A stretch of 56,775 bases of DNA from Thermoproteota archaeon (GTDB lineage: Archaea; Korarchaeota; Korarchaeia; Korarchaeales; Korarchaeaceae): positions 1-56,775 of the forward strand of contig JALSOH010000001.1 of NCBI GenBank assembly GCA_026986575.1, in the 5' to 3' direction. Made by a program: the position numbers and the translations under genes. A model generated the notes under the pieces. That model saw nothing but the letters and a program-made list of their open reading frames with translations, did not search any database and was not told where the DNA came from. Shown here in pieces: positions 7,656 through 45,650 of the stretch (the stretch's first letter is position 1; the number at the start of each line of letters is the position of its first letter).

Positions 7656-9716
7656 ATGGAGGATAATTCCCATCATCTACGTCATGGTCATGAGCACATC
7701 GGGAATGCTGAAGACGATCAGGTTCATGAGCATGATAAGATTCACTCCCACAATGACGGCCATGCGGATCACTCCTCCCACCATAAGCGGATGATGGAGG
7801 ATTTCAAGAGGAGGTTCGTAATATCCACCCTAATAACGGTACCCATCCTCATCCTCTCGCCCCTAGTTCAGAACTTCCTAGGAATAAAGGTGGAGTTCCC
7901 TGGGAGCAATATTCTCCTGTTCGCTCTCTCGCTATTCGTCTATCTGTACGGAGGGAAGCCCTTCTTGGCTGGAATGAGAGACGAGATGATGAAACGCTCC
8001 CCTGGCATGATGACGCTCATCGCACTGGCCATATCCGTGGCTTTCTTCTATAGCTCGGCCGTGAGCTTCGACCTTCAGGGAAGGACATTCTACTGGGAAC
8101 TGGCGACATTGATTGACATAATGCTGCTGGGCCATTACATAGAGATGAGGTCCGTTCTGGGGGCTTCGAGGGCGCTGGAGGAGCTGGTCAAACTCATGCC
8201 AACGGAGGCTCACTTGATCACGAATGGTGAGGTCAGAGATGTTCCCGTGAGTCATCTCAAGCCGGGAAACGTTGTTCTGGTGAAACCGGGAGAGAAGATA
8301 CCAGCAGACGGCATCGTCGTGGAGGGCGAGACGAGCGTGGACGAATCTATGCTGACGGGCGAGTCGAATCCCATCTACAAGGGCCCGGGAGATGAGGTGG
8401 TTGGAGGGTCGGTGAACTTAGAGGGATCGGTGAAGGTGGAGGTCAGAAGAACCGGGAAGGAGAGTTATTTGATGCAGGTGCTCGAGCTCGTGAGGAGAGC
8501 ACAGGAATCTAGGTCGAGGACCCAAGACTTAGCAAACAGGGCGTCCCGCTGGTTAACCATCATTTCCATAAGCGTGGGGACCGTGACGTTCTTGGCTTGG
8601 CTGTGGGCGGGCATGCCTCCCGTCTTCTCCTTGGAGAGGAGCGTTACTGTGATGGTAATCACCTGCCCCCATGCTTTGGGCCTAGCAATTCCACTGGTGG
8701 TCGCAGTTTCCACTTCCCTGTCGGCCAAGAAGGGAATACTCATAAGGGACAGGGAGGCGTTCGAGAGGGCAAAGGATGTGGATATTGTCGTTTTTGACAA
8801 GACTGGTACCCTCACGGAGGGAAGATTTGAGGTGACGGATGTGATCCCTCTAGGGCTTGAATGCGATGATACGCTCAGGCTCGCTGCATCACTAGAATCT
8901 AGGTCAGAACATCCCATAGCTAGGGGAATAGTGGAGAGGGCAGAGGAAGAGGGGTTGGAGCTAGAGGAAGCGAGCGAATTCAGGGCCATTCCAGGCAAGG
9001 GAGCTGAAGGTTTCGTAAACGGGAGGAGGATCGTGGTCGCCAGTCCAAAGCTCCTCGAAGAATTGGGTCTAGGCGACGGAATCGAGGTAGAGGATGTGAA
9101 GAAGGTCATGGGACAGGGGAAGACCGTGATATTCCTCGTAGTGGATGGAGAGCTAGCTGGGGCCATAGCTCTTGCTGACAGGATAAGGGACGAGTCGAAG
9201 GAGGCAGTATCCAAACTGAAAGAGAGAGGCGTCAAGGTCTACATGCTCACCGGAGACAACCAGAAGGTGGCTAAATGGGTCGCCGATGAGCTGGGACTGG
9301 ATGGGTACTTCGCTAAGGTTCTACCCCATGAGAAGGCCGAGAAAGTGGAGGAGCTGAAGTCCCTTGGAGTGGTCGCCATGGTGGGCGATGGAATAAACGA
9401 TGCTCCGGCTCTGGTCCAGTCGGATGTGGGCATAGCCATCGGAGCTGGGACTGATGTGGCCATCGAGAGCGCCGACATAGTACTGGTGAGGAACGACCCT
9501 AGGGATGTGGTGCAGGTAATGGACCTAGCTAGGGCGACCTACAGGAAGATGTACCAGAACCTGCTGTGGGCCACAGGGTATAACGCTCTGGCGATCCCTT
9601 TGGCAGCTGGGGTCCTCTATCCCATGGGGATCCTCCTGAGCCCAGCCGTGGGAGCGGTTCTCATGTCCCTGAGCACAGTGATAGTGGCGGTGAACGCCAA
9701 GCTCCTCGCTCCTTAA
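7656..9716 (+). CDS. copB: CopB-type copper-transporting P-type ATPase
   Basis: This 686-residue P1B-type ATPase moves copper across the membrane at the cost of ATP. Residues 1-45 are packed with His ([16 protein letters not shown]), the metal-binding tail typical of CopB rather than an MxCxxC domain. The transmembrane metal motif is CPH (Cys337-Pro-His339), which defines the CopB subgroup (Cu+/Cu2+, sometimes Ag+) as opposed to CPC of CopA. TGES is at 234-237, the phosphorylated Asp is 381 in DKTGT, and the hinge GDGINDAP begins near 577. Length and order are complete. It is the last gene of the copper operon that starts at 6731. Confidence 0.95.
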
Positions 9717-14740: not shown

Positions 14741-15352
14741 CTAAGTTTCTTTACTAACAATTCCCGAATCGTTCAAAGGCTTAAAAGGGGTCAATTCCCT
14801 TAGTGCTTCAACAACCCATATGCCTCTCTTCTCTGCCTCTCTTATGGATTCAGGAGTCGCCCAGAGAGTGTATATCACCGCAAGTATCTTCTTGTCCCTG
14901 ATGTCCGGGACCTTCCTCCTCACTTCCTCCACCAACCCCAAGATCCTCTTCACCAGACCCACGCCCAAGCGAGTGGTGACCTCTCCGATGACGCATAGGT
15001 CATCGGCACAACCGTAGATGTCCACCTCAAGTCCCTCGATGAAGAGTCTCCTCAGACTTATGTCGATGCCCTTCTCCCTCAACTTATAGGAAATGACCTC
15101 CCTAGCTTCCTCCTCAAGAGATATGCTCGTTCTGTCCATGTATGAGCGAATTTCCTTTATTTTCTCCACTATCTCGTTGAATTTCCTGTCGTGCTCGGCC
15201 AGCTTGGCGACTATCTCGTTGAATTTCCTGTCGTGCTCGGCCAGCTTCCTGAGGATCTCCTCCATCCCGAGGAGGCCAGCCACCGCATACTTGAACTCCT
15301 CATCCTCCCTGAGCAGGGTGAGGATCTTCCTCTTCAAGTCCCAGCTGCTCAT
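14741..15352 (-). CDS. DUF3782-like protein with coiled coil and PD-(D/E)XK-like fold
   Basis: In this 203-residue protein, residues 1-75 are coiled coil with two tandem copies of LAEHDRKFNEIV encoded by near-identical 42-base units (15168-15247). The C-terminal half has GLEVDIYGCADDLCVIGEVTTR followed by a basic helix, the D...E-x-T/K arrangement of PD-(D/E)XK-like nuclease folds as described for DUF3782/DUF1626 proteins common in hyperthermophiles. Lys of the canonical ExK is Thr here (EVTTR), so nuclease activity is uncertain. It stands alone between the envelope genes and a long non-coding stretch. Confidence 0.7.
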   Translation of the reverse strand: MSSWDLKRKILTLLREDEEFKYAVAGLLGMEEILRKLAEHDRKFNEIVAKLAEHDRKFNEIVEKIKEIRSYMDRTSISLEEEAREVISYKLREKGIDISLRRLFIEGLEVDIYGCADDLCVIGEVTTRLGVGLVKRILGLVEEVRRKVPDIRDKKILAVIYTLWATPESIREAEKRGIWVVEALRELTPFKPLNDSGIVSKET

Positions 15353-26325: not shown

Positions 26326-26742
26326 TTAATCGGATTCCGACTCTTCAACGGGATCTATCCTCTCCAGCCCTGGGATGCTATCGTAGGCCCTGTCAAAGGA
26401 TATGATCTTGCCATCCAGATAGAGGGCTGTAGCTGCGTAGTGGGAATCGAAGAAAGAGAGCCCGAATTCCTGCCTGAGTTTTACACTGGTTATGACGGTT
26501 TCAGGCGTAAGCGGGATGAAACTTACGTTTGGCAGCGAGAGGAGAGCAGACATCACTTGGAGGAGTCTGTCCTCCAACTTCTGGGATTTGTATATGAGCT
26601 CTATCTCTATGAGGGTAACTCCGGAGATATCCAGTTTCAACCTGCCTTCCTTCAGTTTATTGAAGATCTTCTCTGCGATATGATGTTTCTCGTCGTTCTC
26701 GTTCATGTAGGCGAAGATCACATCGTTCTCTATGAGAACCAC
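26326..26742 (-). CDS. VapC-type PIN-domain toxin (intact copy)
   Basis: This 138-residue PIN protein starts at GTG 26742, one base inside the stop of the AbrB gene, so the two are translationally coupled. The acidic site residues lie in LIENDVIFAYMNEND (E/D at the usual VDTN position), ISGVTLIEIELIY, and FFDSHYAATAL near the end. PIN toxins are Mg-dependent RNases. A truncated near-copy lies at 34421-34801. Confidence 0.85.
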   Translation of the reverse strand: MVLIENDVIFAYMNENDEKHHIAEKIFNKLKEGRLKLDISGVTLIEIELIYKSQKLEDRLLQVMSALLSLPNVSFIPLTPETVITSVKLRQEFGLSFFDSHYAATALYLDGKIISFDRAYDSIPGLERIDPVEESESD

Positions 26743-26972
26743 TATGCTTCAGCCTCCCTCTCCGCTAAGGTCTCAGCCTCCTTCCTCAGCTCCTTGAAGG
26801 ACTTTTTAGTGTTGAAAGATCCCTTGAGTACTTTGAAAGGATCCTCTGGAATGGGCACTATCTCTATTCTATCGCCTAGGCTGATTAAAAGCACCTTTCT
26901 TCCTCTGAGGATCCTCCTCATCCTCTTCGGAATGGTGATCCTGCCCTTCTCATCGAGTTCCACTATACTCAT
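26742..26972 (-). CDS. AbrB/SpoVT-type antitoxin
   Basis: About 76 residues from ATG 26972. The N-terminal swapped-hairpin DNA-binding fold is clear (SIVELDEKGRITIPKRMRRI, VLLISLGDRIEIVPI), followed by a helical toxin-binding tail (FKELRKEAETLAEREAEA). It should bind its own promoter and neutralise the PIN protein whose start it overlaps. A near-copy lies at 34782-35030. Confidence 0.85.
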   Translation of the reverse strand: MSIVELDEKGRITIPKRMRRILRGRKVLLISLGDRIEIVPIPEDPFKVLKGSFNTKKSFKELRKEAETLAEREAEA

Positions 26973-27197
26973 AATATGGCAGTAAAGTGGGAGCATAAAA
27001 ATATAGATTTGGATGGGTGGGGTCTAATCCTGTTAGTAAGAATATGGATCCCACTTTACTTTGAGCTTCATAGGGGGATCGACGCTGAGCGCCGTGGGTA
27101 GGCGGAAAGGTACGTATGGAGTAAATGCCCAGCTGGTAGAGGGTCGCTGTTCGTTGCTATACTGTCGAGCGTTCTGCCTCCACGATTAAACTGGGGA

Positions 27198-27599
27198 TTA
27201 GGATATCCCTCCGACAACCTCTATTTCTAGGGGGCTTAGTCCCTTACTCAGAATGTCCCTATCAAATGTCACGAACCTGTCGGCCCCGATCATCTTAGCT
27301 AGGGTGACGTGCATGAGATCAAGGGTCTTCAGTCTGAGCTCCTCGGAGAGCGAGATGGAGAGATCGAGGGCCTCGTTGAAGTTGACCTCCTCAATTCTAG
27401 CTTTAGACCTCCTTATCGCGTATTCGGCCAGCGGTACGGGATCGTCAGATAGCCTAGAGAAGACCGAGTATATCTCCACAACCACCAGCTTCGATATAAC
27501 CGGATCTCTAAGATATTTCTCCAGTTTAACCGCCCTCTGGTGATTCACATCGCTCTTCACAGCAAGAGAGATGATGTAACTCGTGTCTAGGTAGTCCAC
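27198..27599 (-). CDS. VapC-type PIN-domain toxin
   Basis: The 133-residue protein opens with MDYLDTSYIISLAVKSDVNH and has VVVEIYSVFSRLS, LDLMHVTLAKMIGADRFVTF and FDRDILSKGL: the four acidic positions of a PIN RNase. Its start overlaps the upstream antitoxin by 13 bases. Only a short stretch matching its 5' end remains in the degraded duplicate near 35170-35240. Confidence 0.82.
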   Translation of the reverse strand: MDYLDTSYIISLAVKSDVNHQRAVKLEKYLRDPVISKLVVVEIYSVFSRLSDDPVPLAEYAIRRSKARIEEVNFNEALDLSISLSEELRLKTLDLMHVTLAKMIGADRFVTFDRDILSKGLSPLEIEVVGGIS

Positions 27600-27850
27600 C
27601 TGTTCCTCTCCCTCCTCACGAACTCGGCCAGATCCACCGGTCCCAAATCTATCCCTCCCTCCTCCTCGTACTCCTTGACTTTCTCCTCTACCTTCATGGT
27701 CTTACGGATCTCAGGGAGAATATCTTTCACGCCCCTCTCTAGAAGGATGTTCAGAGCATCGTTTCTACTCTTGGCCAGCCCTAGCCTCACCATTTTCTCG
27801 GCTATGGCCAGAATCCTGTGACTCACCCTTACACCGACGACCTTCGACAT
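27587..27850 (-). CDS. VapB-like antitoxin
   Basis: About 87 residues from ATG 27850 (SKVVGVRVSHRILAIAEKMV), an N-terminal ribbon-helix-helix-like segment followed by helices (RNDALNILLERGVKDILP) and a charged toxin-binding tail (EEGGIDLGPVDLAEFVRRER). It overlaps the PIN gene downstream. A decayed copy is at 35241-35483. Confidence 0.75.
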   Translation of the reverse strand: MSKVVGVRVSHRILAIAEKMVRLGLAKSRNDALNILLERGVKDILPEIRKTMKVEEKVKEYEEEGGIDLGPVDLAEFVRRERNRWTT

Positions 27851-27962
27851 GTGTACCACCACGTATACTAATTGGCAATATAAAAAGGATGCTGAGAATG
27901 GAGGAGAGGGATGCGCGACGCCTCTTACCGCGCGCTCAGAAGGCCTGAGAAATATAAACAAT

Positions 27963-34127: not shown

Positions 34128-34499
34128 ATGGTTAAAAGGGATGAGTATCTATATCTATTGAGAAGATCTGAAGAATTTCATGAGATAGTTCTGATGAAAA
34201 CAGACAAAGGTTTTCTAGGATCAGCTGTTTTGAACTTGGAATAATCATTACAGCTATTCTTAAAGGCGAAATTACCGGAAAGTGGAGTAGACTATCCTCG
34301 AACCCATAGTGTGCGTAGACTCCTAGAGCTCCTAGCAGAGATCATGAGCGCACCCCTCTCACAAAGGATCAATCGACTAATAGGTGATTACTCGCTGGAA
34401 TTAGCGTTGCTGGAAGATACTTACATCACCTTCAGATATGTACCTAAGGAATTCCGTAAAGATGAGGTCCTAAAGCTAAAGAGAGCCGTGGTGGCATAG
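34128..34499 (+). pseudogene. HEPN-domain gene with in-frame TAA and altered 3' end
   Basis: ATG 34128 follows a TTAATACC box by 26 bases. The frame reads VLMKTDKGFLGSAVLNLE, then TAA 34242-34244, then in the same frame SLQLFLKAKLPESGVDYPRT-HSVRRLLELL and EDTYITFRYVPKEF, the classic HEPN order. CAA to TAA (Gln to stop) is the simplest cause, since NLEQ(A/S)LQL is usual. The last codons (KRAVVA) run into DNA of the antisense PIN gene, so the 3' end was replaced. No partner nucleotidyltransferase is adjacent. Confidence 0.72.
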
Positions 34500-34801
34500 T
34501 GGGAATCGAAGAAAGAGAGCCCGAATTCCTGCCTGAGCCTGACACTGGTTATGACAATTTCAGGAGTGAGTGAGATGAAACCTACGTTTGGGAGCGAGAG
34601 GAGAGCCGACATCACTTTGAGAAGTTCCTCCTCCAGCTTTTGAGATTTGTATATGAACTCCAACTCCAACAGGGTCACTCCAGAGATATCTAGCTTCAAA
34701 TTACCTTTCTTCAGTTTGTGGAATATCCTCTCGGCGACTTGGTGGTTCTCGTCGTTCTCATTCATATGGGCGAAGATCACGTTATTCTCTATGAGAACCA
34801 C
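34421..34801 (-). pseudogene. VapC-type PIN toxin with replaced C-terminus
   Basis: From GTG 34801 the protein follows the 26326 toxin closely (LIENNVIFAHMNENDENH, FGLSFFDSHYATTALF) but leaves it at about 34495 and ends with about 20 residues read from the antisense of the HEPN gene (SFRTSSLRNSLGTYLKVM). The last 25 or so residues of the intact toxin are missing. It overlaps the AbrB copy. Confidence 0.7.
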
Positions 34802-35030
34802 GATTCTCAACCTCCCGCTCTGCTAAAATCTCGGCCTCTCTCCTCAGCTCCTTGAAGGACCTTTTTGTGGTGAAGGATCCCTCGAGCACTTTGAAAGGAT
34901 CTTCCGGAATAGGAACTACTTCTATCCTATCGCCTAAATTTATTAGGAGCACCTTCATTCCTCTGAGGATCCTCCTCATTCGCTTCGGAATGGTGATCCT
35001 GCCCTTCTCATCGAGTTCCACTATATTCAC
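34782..35030 (-). CDS. AbrB/SpoVT-type antitoxin (second copy)
   Basis: About 82 residues from GTG 35030 (NIVELDEKGRITIPKRMRRI, VLLINLGDRIEVVPIPEDPF). It differs from the 26742 copy at few positions in the DNA-binding part. The original stop is lost, so the tail extends by some residues (VENRGSHRE) into the PIN gene. It probably still binds the same operator. Confidence 0.75.
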   Translation of the reverse strand: MNIVELDEKGRITIPKRMRRILRGMKVLLINLGDRIEVVPIPEDPFKVLEGSFTTKRSFKELRREAEILAEREVENRGSHRE

Positions 35031-35169
35031 AGTGGAAAGGAGAGGAGAAGTGGGAGCATAAAAATGTAGACTGGAATTGGCGGGCCGGGCCTCGATGATA
35101 AGGCACAGGCGCTCGCTCTGAACCTGAAATGGGCCCATGAGCTCGATGCTCGCGCGAGTTTAACTGGTC

Positions 35170-35483
35170 TCTCTAGTGGTTCGCATCGCACTTAACAGCT
35201 GGGTCAGAGATTAAGTAACTCGAAACTAGATAGTCAAACTGCTTCTCTCCTCACGAACTCGGCCAGATCCACCGTCTCAAATCCACCCATCCTTCTTCCC
35301 GCACTCTTCGAATTTCTCCTCAACATTCATGGCATTACGGATCTCAGGGAGAATACATTTGGTCCCTCTGTATAGAGGGACTTTCAGAACTTTCATTTCT
35401 ACTCTTGGCCAGCCCTAGCCTTACCATTTTCTCGGCTATGGCTGGAATCCTGTGGCTCACCCTCACACTGACAACCTCGACAT
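35170..35483 (-). pseudogene. decayed second copy of the VapB antitoxin plus scrap of its PIN gene
   Basis: From 35241 to 35483 the DNA follows the 27587-27850 antitoxin (CTCACGAACTCGGCCAGATC, TCTACTCTTGGCCAGCCCTA, ATTTTCTCGGCTATGGC) but with small indels that break the frame. Left of it, about 35170-35240 resembles the first codons of the 27198 toxin; the rest of that toxin is deleted. This confirms that the whole two-module block was duplicated. Confidence 0.7.
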
Positions 35484-35552
35484 GTGCGCTATCTCCCAAA
35501 TTAATACTAAAATTTAGCCGTGATAGGATGTAACGAGAATGGAGATGAAGGC

Positions 35553-36462: not shown

Positions 36463-37814
36463 GGGAAAACACCTTGAACTTCATGGTCCGCAGGCTGCCT
36501 AACGATCTGGAGGTCTTGGTAAGGGAAGGGAGACATTCGGAGGCAAAGCGAAGAATAAAAGAGCTTCTCAAATCTGCTGAAGGAAGGTACAGAAAGAGGT
36601 TGGAGTTCGAGATGGACAGGCTGAGGAGGTGGCCACTCCAATACCCATACGGTGAGGAGGGGGCCTACAAGGTAGCGGCCGAGAGGGTCGAAGGGCTGAC
36701 TCCTGAAGAGTTCAAGCGCCTGCTCTCATCAGGATGCGTCGATTACATAAGGCTAGATGGCGAGATCAGGATCTTCGAGAGGTTCCTCCCCAACATGGTC
36801 TGGCTATGTCCCGAGCTTAAAGGGAGGTATAAGGAGGAGAACGGCACCAAGGCGAAAGCCAGGGAGGCGTTGAAGGAGAGGGCAGTGGAGGTGTTGAAGG
36901 GAGAAGCTACCCCCCTGATATTTAGAGTGAGGGCGGAATTGCGGGTTAAGGGAGATGCCGTCCCTAGAGGTGAGAGAGTGAGGATATGGCTCCCCATACC
37001 TAGGATAAGCTCCCTCCATCCTAAGGTGAGGGTGCTGTCCCACAGCGGTGAGCCCTACATTTCCAGCGAGGACCACCCCCAGAGGACGGCCTACTTCGAG
37101 GTGACCAGCTCTGAAGATGGGACCAAGGTCTGGTTGGAGTACGAAGTCGAGGCTGTACCCCGGGCACCTGATTCACGGGAGATAAATGAGCTGGACGGGA
37201 AGCCTCAACCCCACCATCTGGAGGAGGGGATACCTCATATCACCTTCTTCGAGGAGTTGAGGGATTTGGTCAACTCTCTGATAGCAGATATTGACGATCC
37301 GCTCGCGAGGGCGAGGAGGATCTGGGACTGGGTCATCGACAACATCGCCTACACCTACGTCCACGACTACGCTCTCTTCGACGACATAAGCCGGTTCATC
37401 TTCCAAAGGAGGAGAGGCGATTGCGGAGTTCAAGCGATCCTTCTTATAACGATGCTCCGAATAGCTGGAATCTCTGCGAGGTGGCAGTCGGGGTGGTACG
37501 CGAACCCAGTCAGGTGGGGAATGCACGACTGGGCCCAGCTCTACATCGAACCCCTCGACTGGATCTACATGGATCCCAGCTTCGGTCATCCCAGAGAGGG
37601 GGAGGAGTGGAGGAGGGACTTTTACTTCGGGGGGATAGAGGGCTACAGGCTAGCGTTCAACTCCGAGGTGAACTACCCTTTCGACCCGCCCAAGGAGCAC
37701 TTCAGGTCTGATCCCGTTGATAATCAAAGGGGTGAGGCCGAGTGGGACGGTGGGAACTTGTACTACGATGTGGTGGACACGAGGCTGGAGATACTGGATG
37801 TCAGGCGGCCCTGA
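36459..37814 (+). CDS. transglutaminase-like cysteine protease-fold protein
   Basis: About 451 residues from ATG 36459. The C-terminal half carries the transglutaminase-like triad: Cys322 in RRGDCGVQAILLITMLR, His356 in RWGMHDWAQLYIEP and Asp372 in YMDPSFG. The first 120 residues are charged helices; a beta-rich region (RVRAELRVKGDAVPRGERVR) comes before the triad. No signal peptide, so cytoplasmic. Archaeal members are thought to be proteases or amidases; the substrate is unknown. A decayed copy of the last 70 codons lies at 40079-40291. Confidence 0.82.
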   Translation: MRENTLNFMVRRLPNDLEVLVREGRHSEAKRRIKELLKSAEGRYRKRLEFEMDRLRRWPLQYPYGEEGAYKVAAERVEGLTPEEFKRLLSSGCVDYIRLDGEIRIFERFLPNMVWLCPELKGRYKEENGTKAKAREALKERAVEVLKGEATPLIFRVRAELRVKGDAVPRGERVRIWLPIPRISSLHPKVRVLSHSGEPYISSEDHPQRTAYFEVTSSEDGTKVWLEYEVEAVPRAPDSREINELDGKPQPHHLEEGIPHITFFEELRDLVNSLIADIDDPLARARRIWDWVIDNIAYTYVHDYALFDDISRFIFQRRRGDCGVQAILLITMLRIAGISARWQSGWYANPVRWGMHDWAQLYIEPLDWIYMDPSFGHPREGEEWRRDFYFGGIEGYRLAFNSEVNYPFDPPKEHFRSDPVDNQRGEAEWDGGNLYYDVVDTRLEILDVRRP

Positions 37815-39078: not shown

Positions 39079-39741
39079 TCACTGCAGAAAGCCCATCAGG
39101 CTTGTCCTCCTTCTCTCGTCCAGCAGGTTCTGCATGGTGGCCCACTTCCACCTTATCTGATCCTTGGGGAATGGATAACCACCGAGGACTTTTAGGAGGA
39201 ACTCCTTCGTCCTCCGATCCCCCGGATACCCCGATCCGAAGTCATAACAGGCTCTTTCCTTGAGCTCATCGACTCTCCTGTCCCTCTCGACCTTAGCAAG
39301 TATTGAGGCGGCCGCCACGTGTACGAACCTCTTGTCCGCCTTGTTCTCAGCCCTCACCCTCACCGACATCCCTCCAAGCTTGGACTTGAGGACGCGCTTG
39401 AACCTGTCCGTGTTCCTGCCGGGGGCATCCACTATCGCCAGGCTGGGCCTCAGTTCCCGGATTATATCGGCCATCACTTCCGCCTCCAAGAGGTTGAGTC
39501 CATTCTCGGACACGGCTTCATCTATCCTCTTCGGTTCCACGACCCTGAGCACGTAGGCCTCGGCCAGCTCCTTAATCACAGGTTCAAACTCTTCCCTTCT
39601 CTCAGGTGTTAGGAGCTTGGAATCCTTCACCCCCATAGCTCTGAGCTTCCTAGCAGCGCTAGGCGTCAAGACGACCCCTGCCACCACCATGGGTCCTATC
39701 ACTGGCCCTCTACCAGCTTCATCCAATCCTGCAGTTGGCAT
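39079..39741 (-). CDS. rnhB: ribonuclease HII (copy 1)
   Basis: A 220-residue RNase HII that removes RNA and single ribonucleotides from RNA-DNA hybrids. Active-site residues are in AGLDEAGRGPVIGPMVVAGV (Asp and Glu), AIVDAPGRNTDRFKRVLKSK, and the region VHVAAASILAKVERDRRVDE; the C-terminal GSGYPGDRRTKEFLLKVLGG and QIRWKWATMQNL are as in archaeal enzymes. A second, very similar gene lies at 44940. Confidence 0.95.
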   Translation of the reverse strand: MPTAGLDEAGRGPVIGPMVVAGVVLTPSAARKLRAMGVKDSKLLTPERREEFEPVIKELAEAYVLRVVEPKRIDEAVSENGLNLLEAEVMADIIRELRPSLAIVDAPGRNTDRFKRVLKSKLGGMSVRVRAENKADKRFVHVAAASILAKVERDRRVDELKERACYDFGSGYPGDRRTKEFLLKVLGGYPFPKDQIRWKWATMQNLLDERRRTSLMGFLQ

Positions 39742-39922: not shown

Positions 39923-40078
39923 GTGATACCATCTCTGACTTATGAAGAGTTCGTAAAGTGGCTGAAAGAGGCCGGAAAAACCAGATCCTTCTGGACCAGG
40001 CCGATAGACGATATATCACTCGAGACAGCCGACGGGGAGATATCCTTCCGTGTAGTCTGGGCCACTAGGGAGAGGTAG
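39923..40078 (+). pseudogene. 5' fragment of a paralogue of the 51119 GNAT gene
   Basis: GTG 39923 opens a 51-codon frame, IPSLTYEEFVKWLKEAGKTR then SFWTRPIDDISLE, which matches the first 50 residues of the 51119 gene (PPFTPNEFIDWLREAGKTRT). It follows a TTATAAG box as in the intact gene and ends at TAG 40076, where DNA from another gene begins. Confidence 0.65.
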
Positions 40079-40291
40079 AGGAATGGAGGAGGGACTTCTA
40101 CCTCGAGGGGATTGAAGGTTACAGGCTAGCATTCAACTCTGAGGTAAATTATTCTTTCGATCTGCCCAAGGAAACACCTCAGGTCTGATCCTGTTGATAG
40201 TCAAAGGGGCGAGGCTGAGTGGGATGAGGGAAACCTCTATTACGATGTGGTAGACGCGAGGCTGGAGATATTGGAAGTGAGGAGATCCTAG
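40079..40291 (+). pseudogene. 3' fragment of a paralogue of the transglutaminase-like gene
   Basis: Starting with GAATGGAGGAGGGACTTCTA, the DNA follows the last about 70 codons of the 36459 gene (GIEGYRLAFNSEVNYSFDLP) with frame breaks, ending with the same EILEVRR-type C-terminus at TAG 40289. It is joined base to base to the GNAT-gene fragment. Confidence 0.7.
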
Positions 40292-40462
40292 TCCGTTGAT
40301 CCTCAGCCCTAAAGTTTTCTACCCTCCTCTTGAGATTTAAGGATCTCAGAAAACGCAGATCGTCTATTGCAGTTATGCTCGTGGGATCCTCCGATTGACA
40401 GCGTAATCCTGTGAGACCCTGTACTCAAAAGAGATTATAAGGCGATCAAAGAGGTTGGTAAT

Positions 40463-41962
40463 ATGCGAGCGCGTAAGCGAAAGGACTTAAAGCGAATGAG
40501 GACTGTCCGAATCATACTGCTACTTATAATTCCTGTTATACTCCTAAGTGCTTCTGTGATTGGGGTTCACTCCGATTCCGACGAGGACGAGGGTGAACAC
40601 GGCAGTTGGATCATGATAAGCTCCGAACTGTGCACAACCTGCCATAAAGAGGTGACCATCTCGGTAAAGGAAATGGCCACCCTTGGATGTTCGTCTTGCC
40701 ATTACGGGGATCCTGGTACAACATCTATCGAGCTCGCACACAAGAACCTCATCTCCAATCCCCTAAACAAATCTGTATTAAGCAAGACCTGTGGACAATG
40801 CCACAGGCTCTCCAGCGATGATGTTAGGAAGTTCATATACGGGTATAGGAGAATGCATCCCTCTACTGGAGAAATTGTTCTGGCAAATCTGACAGGAGGT
40901 GGGTCGGAGAGCTGCCTCAATTGCCATCAGAATATCACCATAGGCATAAGTGGCATGAAGAATCTAACCTGCACTGTGTGCCACGGAGGAGACCCCAGCA
41001 GCCTCGAAAAGGATTTAGCCCACTCCGGACTCATAATAGATCCGCTAGAACCGGGTATTGCGGACAAGACCTGTGGACAATGCCATTCTAGCTCGGTATA
41101 CGGAACCAGAATAGAGATACACCCTAGGAGTGCGCAGCAACTAGGAACGACTACTATGTCCTCTACCACTTCCTCTACCACTGAAGTAACCGCGAGAGTG
41201 GAGTCGCCTACCATCGATGGCATAGTGTCTGATGGCGAATACAGCGCCAAATTCGACTTAGGAAAGGTTACGGTATACACTAGGACAGAGGGCGACGTAG
41301 CCTACATCGCTGTTGTTGGCAAAACCACTGGATGGGTAGCAATAGGCTTCGGAGCTACGGAGGGGATGAAAGATGCAGACATCATAATCGGCTGGGTATC
41401 GGGAGGGAGGACTCATGTGCTAGACTCGTACTCGACTGGGAAAACTGGTCCTCACAAACCAGATACGTCGCTTGGGGGATCAAACAATATCCTCGAATAC
41501 GCTGGCAGTGAGGTCAACGGCATAACAACGATAGAATTCGCTAGGAAGCTGGTAACAGGTGATCAGTACGACAAGCCCCTCAGGATCGGAACTAACGCAG
41601 TGATCTGGGCTATAGGGGATTCTGATGATCCTAAGGATATACATGTGGAGAGGGGAAGCGGTACCATCGTTTTGAGAAAGGCCGCACCCACCACGTCGAG
41701 TGAAGTCGTAACAGAGACTCCAAGGGGAAGCACTGCGAGTGCAGCGCTTGAAACAAAGACACTTACCCTAACATATACTGAGTTCAAAGAGCAACTGGAG
41801 ACGGTTACAGAGGTGAAAACAGTCACGGTCACTGAGACCGTAACGGTGGGAACTTCAACACTGAATCAGGGAATATATCATCTCACGAGTCTGCTGGGAA
41901 TCCCGGTGGCGATCGTAATCGCGATGGTTCTGGTCGCCTTCGCGAGGGGGAGATCCCAATAA
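40463..41962 (+). CDS. membrane-anchored hexaheme c-type cytochrome with DOMON domain
   Basis: The 499-residue protein has an N-terminal helix (about 14-36) for export. Six CxxCH haem sites lie at 57-61, 76-80, 110-114, 151-155, 170-174 and 204-208, forming two three-haem units exactly 94 residues apart; extra His residues (LAHKNLI/LAHSGLI, MHPST/IHPRS) recur in both and may be axial ligands. Residues about 248-405 form a DOMON domain (TTGWVAIGFGATEGMKDADI, IIIGWVSGGRTHVLDSYSTG), a b-haem- or sugar-binding fold. A Thr-rich linker and a C-terminal helix (about 474-491) follow. Electron transfer at the outer face is likely. A single-gene unit ending in a T-run. Confidence 0.9.
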   Translation: MRARKRKDLKRMRTVRIILLLIIPVILLSASVIGVHSDSDEDEGEHGSWIMISSELCTTCHKEVTISVKEMATLGCSSCHYGDPGTTSIELAHKNLISNPLNKSVLSKTCGQCHRLSSDDVRKFIYGYRRMHPSTGEIVLANLTGGGSESCLNCHQNITIGISGMKNLTCTVCHGGDPSSLEKDLAHSGLIIDPLEPGIADKTCGQCHSSSVYGTRIEIHPRSAQQLGTTTMSSTTSSTTEVTARVESPTIDGIVSDGEYSAKFDLGKVTVYTRTEGDVAYIAVVGKTTGWVAIGFGATEGMKDADIIIGWVSGGRTHVLDSYSTGKTGPHKPDTSLGGSNNILEYAGSEVNGITTIEFARKLVTGDQYDKPLRIGTNAVIWAIGDSDDPKDIHVERGSGTIVLRKAAPTTSSEVVTETPRGSTASAALETKTLTLTYTEFKEQLETVTEVKTVTVTETVTVGTSTLNQGIYHLTSLLGIPVAIVIAMVLVAFARGRSQ

Positions 41963-41964
41963 GC

Positions 41965-41971
41965 TTTTTTT
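41965..41971 (+). terminator. T-run terminator after the cytochrome gene
   Basis: Seven T residues follow directly after the stop codon (TAA GC TTTTTTT), the usual archaeal termination signal. No clear hairpin. Confidence 0.5.
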
Positions 41972-42248: not shown

Positions 42249-43268
42249 GTGCTGAGTACGGGTTTGCTCAGGTACTCTAGGCAATTGTCCCTGAAGGTAA
42301 TTGGGATTGAAGGGCAGAGGAAGCTCCGAGAGGCGAGTATTGCAATAGTTGGTTGTGGCGCTCTTGGATCTCACTCTGCAGAGTTGCTGACTAGAATGGG
42401 CGTTGGGAGACTCAAACTGATTGATAGAGATGTGGTAGAGCTGGAAAATCTCCATAGGCAGTACTATACCGAGGAACATGCCAGAAATAGTCATCCCAAG
42501 GCCATAGCACTCGCAGAGAGGTTGTCTAAAGTCAACAGCGAGGTGGAGATAGGGCCCGTAATTGCTGATGTAAATTCCAGAAACGTCGTCTCGTTAATCA
42601 CTGATGTCGATATTGTCGTGGACGGGACCGACAACTTCGAAACGCGATTTCTCCTTAATGATGCCTGCATCAAACTTGGGAAACCCTGCGTATTCGGTGC
42701 TGCAGTGGAAACTTACGGAATGGTCTATCCAGTTCTCCCCAGTGGACCATGCTTGAGGGACCTCATGGACTCCCCACCTCCCCCCGGATCAGTGCCGACG
42801 TGCGATGTAGTTGGCATACTTCCCACGGTAGCCTCGATGGTGTCTAGTCAGCAGATAACAGAAGTCCTAAAGATATTACTAGGTAAGGCAGAGACAGGGA
42901 AGGTCCTATTCTTTAATCCCTGGGAAAGGATCTTTGATGAGATCAAAGTGGCTAAAAGAGATGATTGCCCCTCATGCGCTCTCTCCAAGTTCGAGTACCT
43001 GTCTAAAGAGGTTAAAGACGCTGAGCTATGTGGGAGGAGTTCCGTCCACCTGAGTTCCAGGGGACCTGTCGATATCAGGTCTCTGTATCAGAGACTAACC
43101 AGCCTGCAAGACCTACAAGACGAACTTCGACTGAAACTATCTGCTTATGCCCTCTACATCAAAGGTAGAGATTTTGAGATGATCTTATTCCCTGACGGGA
43201 GAGCGATCGTTAAAGGGGCGGATCTCAATAGAGCGAAGTCCCTTTACGCAAGATATGTGGGGATATAG
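42249..43268 (+). CDS. E1-like ThiF/MoeB-family adenylyltransferase
   Basis: The gene encodes 339 residues from GTG 42249, about 27 bases after a TTAAATTAAAT box. The ATP site is GCGALGSHSAELLTRMG with LIDRDVVELENLHRQ, and VDGTDNFETRFLLND follows. CPSC at about 238-241 may bind zinc with further Cys residues. The last 90 residues form an extra domain, not a clear rhodanese (no CxxGxR loop seen). Such enzymes adenylate the C-terminus of ThiS/MoaD-type sulfur carriers. Its neighbours, a serine kinase and a CysM-like synthase, suggest a role in sulfur supply for cysteine. Confidence 0.88.
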   Translation: MLSTGLLRYSRQLSLKVIGIEGQRKLREASIAIVGCGALGSHSAELLTRMGVGRLKLIDRDVVELENLHRQYYTEEHARNSHPKAIALAERLSKVNSEVEIGPVIADVNSRNVVSLITDVDIVVDGTDNFETRFLLNDACIKLGKPCVFGAAVETYGMVYPVLPSGPCLRDLMDSPPPPGSVPTCDVVGILPTVASMVSSQQITEVLKILLGKAETGKVLFFNPWERIFDEIKVAKRDDCPSCALSKFEYLSKEVKDAELCGRSSVHLSSRGPVDIRSLYQRLTSLQDLQDELRLKLSAYALYIKGRDFEMILFPDGRAIVKGADLNRAKSLYARYVGI

Positions 43269-43291
43269 AAGTGGATGGGTACTCAGAGGGG

Positions 43292-43756
43292 TTAAACTAG
43301 GTTAAGATCGACGACAGGGCTACCTTTTCTTACATTTAGCCCCTTCAATACCTCTAAGGGAGTTGGATGTTCTCCCTCAAGAAACTCCACATGCCTCTCA
43401 CAACCATCGCAGAGAATGACGTGTTTACTGGTTTTTGGTGGGAGCAGCTTGCCTGTAAGCCCCGCTCTCACGACATCCTCTTTAGTCACCTTGTCACAGT
43501 CTCTCCAAGGTACAACGCATATATTGCTGTTCTCGTAATCAACTAGAAGCGCTGGCACGAGCTTGCAGCCCAGCTCCCTGAGCGCTTGCACCCTGTGATG
43601 TCCGTCTATAACAATTAGGTTCTTTTCATCCACTAATATGGGTCTCACAAGTACCCCGCTTCTTCTGAGCTCCTCTTTGAGCTTCTCCACCCTATCACGC
43701 TCAACTAACTCATGTGCTCTTAGCCTGTCGATCTCTATAAGCACGATTCGACTCAT
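43292..43756 (-). CDS. serK: SerK-like free serine kinase (ParB-fold)
   Basis: About 155 residues from ATG 43756 (two upstream ATGs also in frame). The ParB/sulfiredoxin-like core is present: IEIDRLRAHELVERDRVEKL and NLIVIDGHHRVQALRELGCK, then LLPPKTSKHVIL. These match SerK, the ADP-dependent kinase of Thermococcus that converts L-serine to O-phosphoserine; the Glu of RAHELV and Asp of IDGHHR correspond to the residues found important there. It is shorter than the Thermococcus enzyme and has three Cys in the C-terminal part (LCDGCERH). Divergent from the CysM-like gene with a shared promoter. A ParB-like DNA-binding role is the alternative. Confidence 0.75.
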   Translation of the reverse strand: MSRIVLIEIDRLRAHELVERDRVEKLKEELRRSGVLVRPILVDEKNLIVIDGHHRVQALRELGCKLVPALLVDYENSNICVVPWRDCDKVTKEDVVRAGLTGKLLPPKTSKHVILCDGCERHVEFLEGEHPTPLEVLKGLNVRKGSPVVDLNLV

Positions 43757-43803
43757 ACGCCTCATCATTAACTATAGTAATAAATAAATGTATCTAGGTT
43801 CAG
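43757..43803. promoter_or_regulatory. shared divergent promoter of serK-like and cysM-like genes
   Basis: The A/T core TATAGTAATAAATAAATG (about 43774-43791) can serve as TATA box in both directions, 22-30 bases from each start. One regulator could control both genes together. Confidence 0.5.
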
Positions 43804-44760
43804 ATGGGTACGATGTACGCGAGCGTGTTGGACCTCATAGGGAAAACCCCCCTCGTGAGAATAAACAGACTGAATCCGAATCCCAAGGTGGAGATTTACG
43901 CTAAATTGGAAGGACTCAATCCCGGAGGTTCAGTTAAGGATAGGATTTGCGTGAAGATGATAGAAGAAGCTGAGAGAAAGGGTGAGCTCACTAAGGAGAA
44001 GGTCATCTTGGAGCCCACCTCTGGCAACACGGGCATAGGGCTAGCGATGGTGGCAGCCGTCAGAGGATACAGATGCATCTTAGTCATGCCCGCCAGCGTA
44101 AGTATAGAGAGAGTGCTTATGTTGAAGGCTCTTGGAGCTGAAGTGGTACTCACACCACCAGAAAAGGGGACCGATGGAGCGATACTAAAAGCCCGGGAAA
44201 TATATCAGAACGATCCATCGCGTTACTTCATGCCAGACCAGTTTGATAACCCAGCAAATCCCTTGGCCCACTACGAGACGACTGGTCCGGAGATATGGAA
44301 CGACACAGGCGGTAAAGTGACCCACTTGGTGGCTGGTCTCGGTACGAGCGGTACCCTCATGGGAGCGGGTAGATACCTCAAGGAAAGGAATCCAGACATT
44401 CAAATAATAGCGGCAGAGCCGGAGATGGGTCACAGAATACAGGGACTGAAGAATATGAGGGAAGCCGTCGTCCCAACAATATACGATGAGTCCTTCATAG
44501 ACAGAAAGATAGAGGTGAAGACTGAGGACGCATATGAGTGGGCGTTACGTCTCACTAGGGAAGAAGGCATATTCTCAGGACAGTCATCTGGTGCCGCGAT
44601 GTATGCTGCCGCAGAGGTGGCGAAGGAACTGGAACACGGCTTAATTGTCGTCGTTCTACCGGATATGGGATTCAAGTACCTCTCTTCGCCCCCCTACTAC
44701 GACGAAGAAATAGTTGAGAAGGTAATGGAAGCCAGAAAGGGGCTCGTGGTGAAGATCTAA
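43804..44760 (+). CDS. PLP-dependent cysteine synthase, CysM-like (probable O-phosphoserine user)
   Basis: A 318-residue fold-type II PLP enzyme. The PLP lysine is in LNPGGSVKDRICVKMIEEAE, the phosphate loop in EPTSGNTGIGLAMVAAV, and GLGTSGTLMGAGRYLKE follows. EPEMGHRIQGLKNMREAVVP and IYDESFIDRKIEV are characteristic of the branch containing CysM of actinobacteria and its relatives, which use O-phosphoserine and a thiocarboxylated carrier protein rather than O-acetylserine and sulfide. With SerK-like and E1-like neighbours, synthesis of cysteine from phosphoserine is the likely role. Confidence 0.85.
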   Translation: MGTMYASVLDLIGKTPLVRINRLNPNPKVEIYAKLEGLNPGGSVKDRICVKMIEEAERKGELTKEKVILEPTSGNTGIGLAMVAAVRGYRCILVMPASVSIERVLMLKALGAEVVLTPPEKGTDGAILKAREIYQNDPSRYFMPDQFDNPANPLAHYETTGPEIWNDTGGKVTHLVAGLGTSGTLMGAGRYLKERNPDIQIIAAEPEMGHRIQGLKNMREAVVPTIYDESFIDRKIEVKTEDAYEWALRLTREEGIFSGQSSGAAMYAAAEVAKELEHGLIVVVLPDMGFKYLSSPPYYDEEIVEKVMEARKGLVVKI

Positions 44761-44939: not shown

Positions 44940-45602
44940 CTACTCCATGAAATCCGTTAAGCTCGCCCTCCTCCTCTCATTTAGTAGGTTCTGCATGGTG
45001 GCCCATTTCCACCTTATCTGATCTTTCGGAAATGGAAAGCCACTGAGCACTTTTAGGAGGAACTCCTTCGTCCTCGGATCACCCGGGTACCCTGATCCAA
45101 AGTCATAGCCAGCCCTTGCCCTGAGTTCAGCCACCTTCCTGTCTCTCTCGACCTTAGCAAGTATGGAGGCGGCAGCCACATGAACGAATCTCACATCCGC
45201 CTTGTTCTCAGCCCTCACCCTTACAGGCACTCCTCCCAACTTGGATTTTAGGATACGCTTGAACTTGTCCGTATTCCTACCGGGGGCATCCACTATGACC
45301 ATGCTAGGCTTTAATTCCAAGATTATCTCAGCCATAACCTCCGCTTCCAAGGCGTTTAGCTCATTTCTCGTTACAGCGTCATCTATCCTCTTGGGCTCAA
45401 CCACCCTGACAGCATACGCATCTGCCAACTCCTTTATCATAGGTTCGAGCTCCTCCCTTCTCTCTGGAGGGAGGAGTTTGGAATCTCTTACCCCCATCCT
45501 CTTCAGCTTCTTAGCTGCATCGGGCGAGAGTATAACCCCAGCAATCACCATAGGTCCTATCACTGGTCCTCTGCCCGCTTCGTCGAGCCCTGCTGTCGGC
45601 AT
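44940..45602 (-). CDS. rnhB: ribonuclease HII (copy 2)
   Basis: About 220 residues from ATG 45602 (MPTAGLDEAGRGP), same start as copy 1; an in-frame ATG 15 bases upstream also exists. All active-site segments are intact: AGLDEAGRGPVIGPMVIAGV, VIVDAPGRNTDKFKRILKSK, and VHVAAASILAKVERDRKVAE. Most residues are shared with copy 1 at 39079, and the differences are conservative, which suggests that both are functional. Confidence 0.95.
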   Translation of the reverse strand: MPTAGLDEAGRGPVIGPMVIAGVILSPDAAKKLKRMGVRDSKLLPPERREELEPMIKELADAYAVRVVEPKRIDDAVTRNELNALEAEVMAEIILELKPSMVIVDAPGRNTDKFKRILKSKLGGVPVRVRAENKADVRFVHVAAASILAKVERDRKVAELRARAGYDFGSGYPGDPRTKEFLLKVLSGFPFPKDQIRWKWATMQNLLNERRRASLTDFME

Positions 45603-45650
45603 GATCGAACTCAACATCCTACTGAAACTAAAAAGGGATCCGGTTTAGAG

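What the first reader, a model, noticed from the sequence alone, without database searches (positions are those of the whole stretch)
40463..41962. Hexaheme cytochrome built from a 94-residue triplicate-haem duplication, fused to DOMON and anchored at both ends
Seen: six CxxCH sites at exact 94-residue offsets (57/151, 76/170, 110/204), with matching extra His residues, then a DOMON domain, a Thr-rich linker and a C-terminal helix. It stands alone with its own terminator. The fusion of two three-haem units with DOMON in one archaeal surface protein is unusual and could wire electrons from the membrane to outside acceptors or carry a b-haem.
Basis: partly seen in the sequence, partly recalled or inferred. 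Interest (0 to 1): 0.65.

Follow-up and report, generated by a model that had tools for sequence, protein, structure and literature searches.

The report
Archaeal six-haem cytochrome fused to DOMON
This gene encodes a membrane-tethered surface protein of a (probably korarchaeal) archaeon that joins two copies of a three-haem electron-carrying unit, otherwise found here only in bacterial cytochromes, to a DOMON domain that probably holds a seventh haem; it most likely passes electrons at the cell surface, and similar fusions are already known in a few bacteria.

Summary
Window 40463-41962 (+) encodes 499 aa with six CxxCH motifs at exactly 94-residue offsets, a DOMON domain (PF03351, 2.4e-26), Thr-rich linkers and a C-terminal membrane helix. 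The N-terminal hydrophobic stretch may be a signal peptide rather than a second anchor. The genome carries an archaeal-type Ccm set (CcmC, CcmE with CxxxY, CcmA, CcmB, CcdA-thioredoxin, CcmF) beside an octahaem cytochrome. Motifs 2 and 3 are invariant, and motif 1 nearly so, in bacterial homologues. Each three-haem unit is homologous to the N-terminal module of bacterial 11-12-haem ExtM-like cytochromes; no other genome of this archaeal phylum (28 searched) has it. The DOMON half is instead closest to a stand-alone DOMON of the same genus, and both keep a Met and a His spaced as in b-haem DOMONs. So this looks like a local DOMON joined to a bacterial-type module, in a segment that three close relatives lack. 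Most likely it is a seven-haem surface electron relay; donor and acceptor are unknown. Precedent: an MtrA-family nonahaem-DOMON fusion in bacteria (PMC8805035). New variant of a known kind, moderate interest.

The parts
40435..40440 (+). TATA-like box (TTATAA), about 25 nt upstream of the ATG
   Evidence: read directly from the sequence; consensus resemblance only
40463..41962 (+). hexahaem cytochrome-DOMON fusion protein, 499 aa
   Evidence: ORF and translation
40499..40561 (+). N-terminal hydrophobic stretch (residues about 13-33) after a basic start: signal peptide or signal anchor
   Evidence: hydropathy; AlphaFold helix 2-32 with good pLDDT
40616..40882 (+). three-haem unit 1 (CxxCH at residues 57, 76, 110)
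   Evidence: motifs; profile of the module rings at 40619-40876, E 5.4e-25, though this sequence was a member of the profile
40898..41164 (+). three-haem unit 2 (CxxCH at residues 151, 170, 204)
   Evidence: motifs; alignment to bacterial modules
41129..41197 (+). Ser/Thr-rich linker (residues 223-245)
   Evidence: composition
41270..41617 (+). DOMON domain (residues 270-385 in Pfam); predicted b-haem ligands Met302 (41366-41368) and His394 (41642-41644), the latter just past the Pfam boundary
   Evidence: Pfam PF03351 2.4e-26; alignment of Met/His
41684..41896 (+). Thr-rich C-terminal linker (residues 408-478)
   Evidence: composition
41870..41953 (+). C-terminal membrane helix followed by a short basic tail (residues 470-497)
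   Evidence: hydropathy, AlphaFold helix 470-497
41965..41971 (+). T-run after the stop codon, probable archaeal terminator
   Evidence: read from the sequence; no hairpin on + strand

Best explanation
An extracytoplasmic electron-relay cytochrome, held by a C-terminal membrane helix on a Thr-rich stalk. It is exported, its six CxxCH motifs are loaded with c-haem by the genome's Ccm system, and its DOMON domain binds a b-haem through Met302 and His394, giving seven haems in one chain. Electrons would pass between the tandem three-haem units and the DOMON haem, linking a membrane-side redox enzyme (octahaem cytochrome, formate dehydrogenase with cytochrome b, or another quinol-linked enzyme) with an acceptor or partner outside the membrane. 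Shown: motifs, duplication, domain homologies, Ccm genes, conserved Met/His. Inferred: export, haem loading, b-haem, membrane topology, direction of electron flow and partners. Evolutionarily, a DOMON of this genus was joined to a duplicated bacterial-type three-haem module (inferred from relatedness of the halves).
For: Six CxxCH in a duplicated unit. Module homologous to N-terminal three-haem modules of bacterial 11-12-haem ExtM-like cytochromes, with motifs 2 and 3, the AH histidine and KTCGQCH invariant and motif 1 nearly so. Ccm genes in one row beside an octahaem cytochrome; CcmE-like protein with C-HKA-Y, matching the CxxxY that PMC9084895 shows to be needed for haem attachment. DOMON Met302/His394 are 92 residues apart; Met286/His379 of fly CG8399, equated with the CDH haem ligands, are 93 apart (PMC10691727). 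4 of 5 DOMONs also match Pfam CDH-cyt, weakly. Met and His are kept in the DOMONs of the six genomes that have PF01578 (Ccm) genes and lost in the DOMONs of G006/G007, which lack them. Six non-motif histidines (36, 46, 93, 132, 187, 220) could serve six haems.
Against: No biochemical evidence. No confident structure. No adjacent redox gene: the neighbours are a MoeB/ThiF-like protein, a SerK-like protein and cysteine synthase. Present in only one of 29 genomes of the phylum, so it is not essential to the lineage's respiration. His394 aligns one residue out of register with the stand-alone DOMONs. Distal haem ligands are only partly conserved: many homologues have Met where this protein has the HP His.
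Confidence: 0.62

Rival explanations
1. The DOMON domain binds a carbohydrate or surface glycan rather than haem, and serves to dock a six-haem cytochrome on the cell surface or on a substrate.
For: Some DOMON-superfamily members bind sugar (PMC10691727); the nearest Pfam match beyond DOMON is weak for CDH-cyt (0.0032).
Against: Met and His at the haem-ligand spacing are conserved in this protein and in the genus's stand-alone DOMONs, whereas PMC10691727 reports that they are not conserved in sugar-binding DOMONs. DOMONs without Met/His (G006, G007) come from genomes without Ccm genes.
Confidence: 0.15
2. A dedicated partner of the octahaem HAO/HDH-family cytochrome: it shuttles electrons for a nitrogen-compound oxidoreductase rather than to extracellular acceptors in general.
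For: In this genus all five genomes with a DOMON of this type also have the octahaem cytochrome (7 of 16 genomes have it); chance by simple counting is 21/4368, without correction for kinship.
Confidence: 0.18
3. A recently acquired gene with little or no role, on the way to being lost.
For: Found in one of 29 genomes, inside an added segment bounded by duplicated genes.
Against: Long intact frame with all six motifs, TATA-like box and T-run terminator; base composition like the window (50.1 versus 51.3% G+C); the fused DOMON, 53-59% identical to the genus DOMON, argues for residence in this lineage.
Confidence: 0.05

Closest known systems
[quoted passage not shown]
   Same: Multihaem c-type cytochrome fused in one chain to DOMON, in an extracellular electron transfer setting
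   Different: Nine haems of the MtrA family, bacterial periplasm, inside an mtrCAB cluster; here six haems in two ExtM-type units, archaeon, stand-alone gene. Sequences were not compared here
ExtM (12-haem cytochrome of the Geobacter selenite/tellurite ext cluster, PMC5877670) and ExtM-like 11-12-haem cytochromes
   Same: The three-haem unit is the N-terminal module of these proteins, motif for motif (CLxCHxGI, CHGGDP, AH, KTCGQCH)
   Different: Only that module, duplicated; no remaining six to nine haems; NCBIfam ExtM score 64.7 against a cut-off of 800; no ext cluster
Tandem three-haem c7-domain dodecahaem cytochromes of Geobacter (GSU1996 by my recollection; PDB 3ov0, 3ouq, 3oue, listed only as 'Cytochrome c family protein')
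   Same: Array of repeated three-haem units in one chain; sequence profile matches 3ov0 at E 2.7e-5
   Different: Weak, partial match; motif spacing 19/34 here; only two units, plus DOMON and a membrane helix
Cytochrome (DOMON-like) domain of cellobiose dehydrogenase and CYBDOM proteins
   Same: DOMON fold family with Met and His spaced 92-93 residues apart as b-haem ligands, used for inter-domain electron transfer
   Different: Fused here to c-haems, not to a flavin dehydrogenase or cytochrome b561; haem binding not measured

Membership tests
c-type multihaem cytochrome | Several CxxCH haem-attachment motifs | tested here: met
   Six motifs, conserved in homologues
c-type multihaem cytochrome | Cytochrome c maturation system in the genome | tested here: met
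   CcmC, CcmE-like (CxxxY), CcmA, CcmB, CcdA-Trx and CcmF in a row at G000:C4
c-type multihaem cytochrome | Covalent haem | not testable with these tools
   needs haem stain or mass spectrometry
DOMON (PF03351) | Score over the curated cut-off | tested here: met
   92.8 against 32.7 bits
b-haem-binding DOMON (CDH/CYBDOM type) | Met and His ligands at conserved positions | tested here: met
   Met302/His394, spacing 92 against 93 in CG8399; one-residue register uncertainty at the His
b-haem-binding DOMON (CDH/CYBDOM type) | Pfam CDH-cyt (PF16010) over cut-off | tested here: not met
   17.6 against 27 bits
ExtM (NF040943) | Full-length equivalog score (800 bits) | tested here: not met
   64.7 bits, only the N-terminal module matched
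Cytochrome_C7 / Cytochrom_c3_2 (PF14522, PF14537) | Score over the curated cut-off | tested here: met
   26.6 against 24.8 and 34.4 against 25 for the whole protein; unit 2 alone is below both
MtrA-DOMON | MtrA-family nonahaem domain | tested here: not met
   six haems; no match to a DmsE/MtrA-type model above cut-off (TIGR03508 18.3 against 192.2 bits)
Extracellular electron conduit | Surface exposure and electron transfer to an external acceptor | not testable with these tools
   only membrane stretches predicted

The most novel reading that the evidence does not exclude
A seven-haem c/b hybrid made inside one archaeal genus by joining its own haem-binding DOMON to a duplicated three-haem module imported from bacteria, giving this species a surface electron outlet that its relatives lack.
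Probability: 0.35. Interest if true: 0.6.

Novelty: new variant of a known kind. Interest (0 to 1): 0.4.

Why it matters
It would be an example of a mixed c- and b-haem electron carrier in an uncultured archaeal lineage, and a clear case of domain shuffling in which the two halves of one protein have different kin. It also brings to light a respiratory set (octahaem cytochrome with archaeal Ccm genes) in part of this genus, which makes its anaerobic respiration directly testable.

Tried and rejected
AlphaFold of the DOMON alone (mean pLDDT 36) and of the whole protein with 15 rows (44.9) gave no usable fold, so no fold search was made. Sequence search of the PDB with the DOMON, alone and as a profile, found no significant haem protein; dopamine beta-hydroxylase appears only at E 2.1. 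Viral contigs and plasmids: no relatives. Tree of the three-haem units: long branches, unresolved, neither supports nor excludes sister units. Contamination of the contig was considered and rejected: flanking genes are syntenic with several genomes of the same genus. Misassembly through the duplicated rnhB was considered: the copies are only 80% identical and relative G011 also carries the MoeB-SerK-CysK genes beside transglutaminase and rnhB. Other archaeal phyla could only be covered by the seed-based scan of 84,980 genomes, whose 23 hits are all bacterial; a diverged fusion in other archaea could have been missed.

Full report
Observation. The ORF at 40463-41962 (+) is real and is as described. 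It has six CxxCH motifs at residues 57, 76, 110 and 151, 170, 204, each pair exactly 94 residues apart, and no other cysteines. The halves are identical at 32 of 75 positions; leaving out the C, C and H of the motifs, 23 of 66 against a maximum of 15 in 10,000 shuffles. At DNA level the halves no longer find each other (blastn self-comparison), so the duplication is old. DOMON follows (PF03351, 92.8 bits, cut-off 32.7), with Thr/Ser-rich linkers on both sides and a C-terminal hydrophobic helix with a basic tail. The N-terminal stretch is basic then hydrophobic; whether it is cleaved cannot be told, so 'anchored at both ends' is half shown. The gene has its own TATA-like box and a T-run after the stop.

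Who the halves are related to. The scan of 84,980 bacterial and archaeal genomes gave 23 relatives, all bacterial, all through the haem part. They are large cytochromes, almost all with 11-12 CxxCH, and the match is to their N-terminal three-haem module. All four of them that were scanned match the NCBIfam ExtM model strongly, and L009 exceeds its cut-off (928 against 800 bits). In the alignment, motifs 2 and 3, the glycine after motif 2, the AH histidine and KTCGQCH are invariant, and motif 1 nearly so. A profile of this module finds only this gene among 29 genomes of the phylum, apart from a marginal hit to the octahaem cytochrome of G016. The profile matches solved multihaem cytochromes weakly, among them 3ov0 (E 2.7e-5). 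The DOMON half has other kin: 53-59% identity to stand-alone DOMON proteins of about 202-213 aa in this genome and in G011, G016, G017 and G018 of the same genus, and only 35-38% to DOMONs of other genera. So the fusion joins a DOMON of this genus with a bacterial-type haem module (inference).

Haem chemistry. PMC10691727 reports that the CDH cytochrome domain binds b-haem by Met and His, that these are Met286 and His379 in fly CG8399, and that sugar-binding DOMONs do not conserve them. Here Met302 (GMKDADI) and His394 (DIHVERGSG) are 92 apart, and the genus's stand-alone DOMONs have the same pair (RMKDADM, KHNVAKGSG), with a one-residue shift at the His. In G001 the Met and a His are also present; in G006 and G007 both are missing. 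The PF01578 genes of the Ccm system are found in G000, G011, G016, G017, G018 and G001 but not in G006 or G007: Met/His and Ccm go together in these eight genomes. Non-motif histidines of the haem part are six (36, 46, 93, 132, 187, 220), enough for six distal ligands, but only the AH histidine is invariant in homologues, and many have Met where this protein has the HP histidine.

Can this cell make c-type cytochromes? Yes, by gene content. At G000:C4:645614-654433 an octahaem cytochrome (Multi-haem_cyto 5.9e-24; best NCBIfam hydrazine dehydrogenase, far below cut-off) is followed by CcmC, a CcmE-like protein ending in C-HKA-Y, an ABC ATPase (CcmA), CcmB, a thioredoxin-CcdA-like fusion and CcmF. 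The CcmE-like protein had no Pfam match; I identify it by place, length, N-terminal helix and the CxxxY motif, which PMC9084895 finds in all archaeal CcmE and shows to be needed for haem attachment in M. acetivorans. Six other genomes of the genus carry the octahaem cytochrome. A split-Soret cytochrome with a cytochrome b (C9), a formate dehydrogenase with cytochrome b subunit, and a sulfide:quinone reductase-like protein are further redox parts.

Setting. In relatives G015, G016 and G017 the order is NUDIX, transglutaminase-like, (PIN), rnhB, and Opp genes where the contig continues, with one such rnhB. In the window a segment is added after rnhB: a 213-bp copy of the transglutaminase end (40070-40282), the cytochrome, MoeB/ThiF-like, SerK-like, cysteine synthase and a second rnhB. 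G011 has cysteine synthase, SerK-like and ThiF beside transglutaminase and rnhB, but its contig ends inside ThiF, just where the cytochrome would follow, so absence there is undecided. The neighbours look like a cysteine/sulfur-carrier group and have no evident tie to the cytochrome.

Organism. Genus member G009 (one contig, about 1.6 Mb) fits Ca. Korarchaeum cryptofilum by my own knowledge, so I take the genome as korarchaeal, with moderate confidence.

Verdict. Best explanation: a seven-haem (six c, one b) surface electron relay, 0.62. The electron path, the b-haem and the second anchor remain unproven. The architecture has a bacterial precedent in the mtrA-DOMON proteins of PMC8805035; it is therefore a new variant, not a new kind. 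A literature search for DOMON with multiheme cytochrome and archaea found nothing in the open library, which is weak evidence of novelty only.

Noticed in passing
G000:C4:645614-654433 (L037:5614-14433): Octahaem HAO/HDH-family cytochrome with a C-terminal membrane helix, directly followed by a full archaeal-type Ccm gene set; the octahaem gene is present in 7 of 16 genomes of the genus, patchily
   Followed up: partly
G000:C9:252975-255103 (L040:4975-7103): Split-Soret-type cytochrome c (two CxxCH) next to a cytochrome b561/formate dehydrogenase gamma-like protein
   Followed up: no
G000:C4:802159-804688 (L056:5159-7688, - strand): PhsA/DMSO-reductase-family molybdoenzyme interrupted in frame by a TAA, next to an NrfD-like membrane protein and a sulfide:quinone reductase-like gene: pseudogene or assembly error
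   Followed up: no
39079-39741 and 44940-45617; 37594-37805 and 40070-40282: Second RNase HII copy (80% identical DNA) and a copied end of a transglutaminase-like gene frame the segment that holds the cytochrome; relatives have one copy
   Followed up: yes
42249-44760: MoeB/ThiF-like, SerK-like (ADP-dependent serine kinase family) and cysteine synthase genes side by side, suggesting O-phosphoserine-based cysteine synthesis and sulfur-carrier activation
   Followed up: partly
G006:C15 and G007:C15 (L033, L034): DOMON proteins that lack the haem-ligand Met and His, in genomes without PF01578 Ccm genes
   Followed up: partly
26435-27853 and 34494-35486: Another pair of long repeats, 80-83% identical
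   Followed up: no
15168-15247: Two exact 38-bp tandem copies (period 42) giving a repeated KLAEHDRKFNEIV stretch in a coiled-coil-like ORF (14741-15352, -)
   Followed up: no
7656-9716: Heavy-metal P-type ATPase with a very His-rich N-terminus
   Followed up: no
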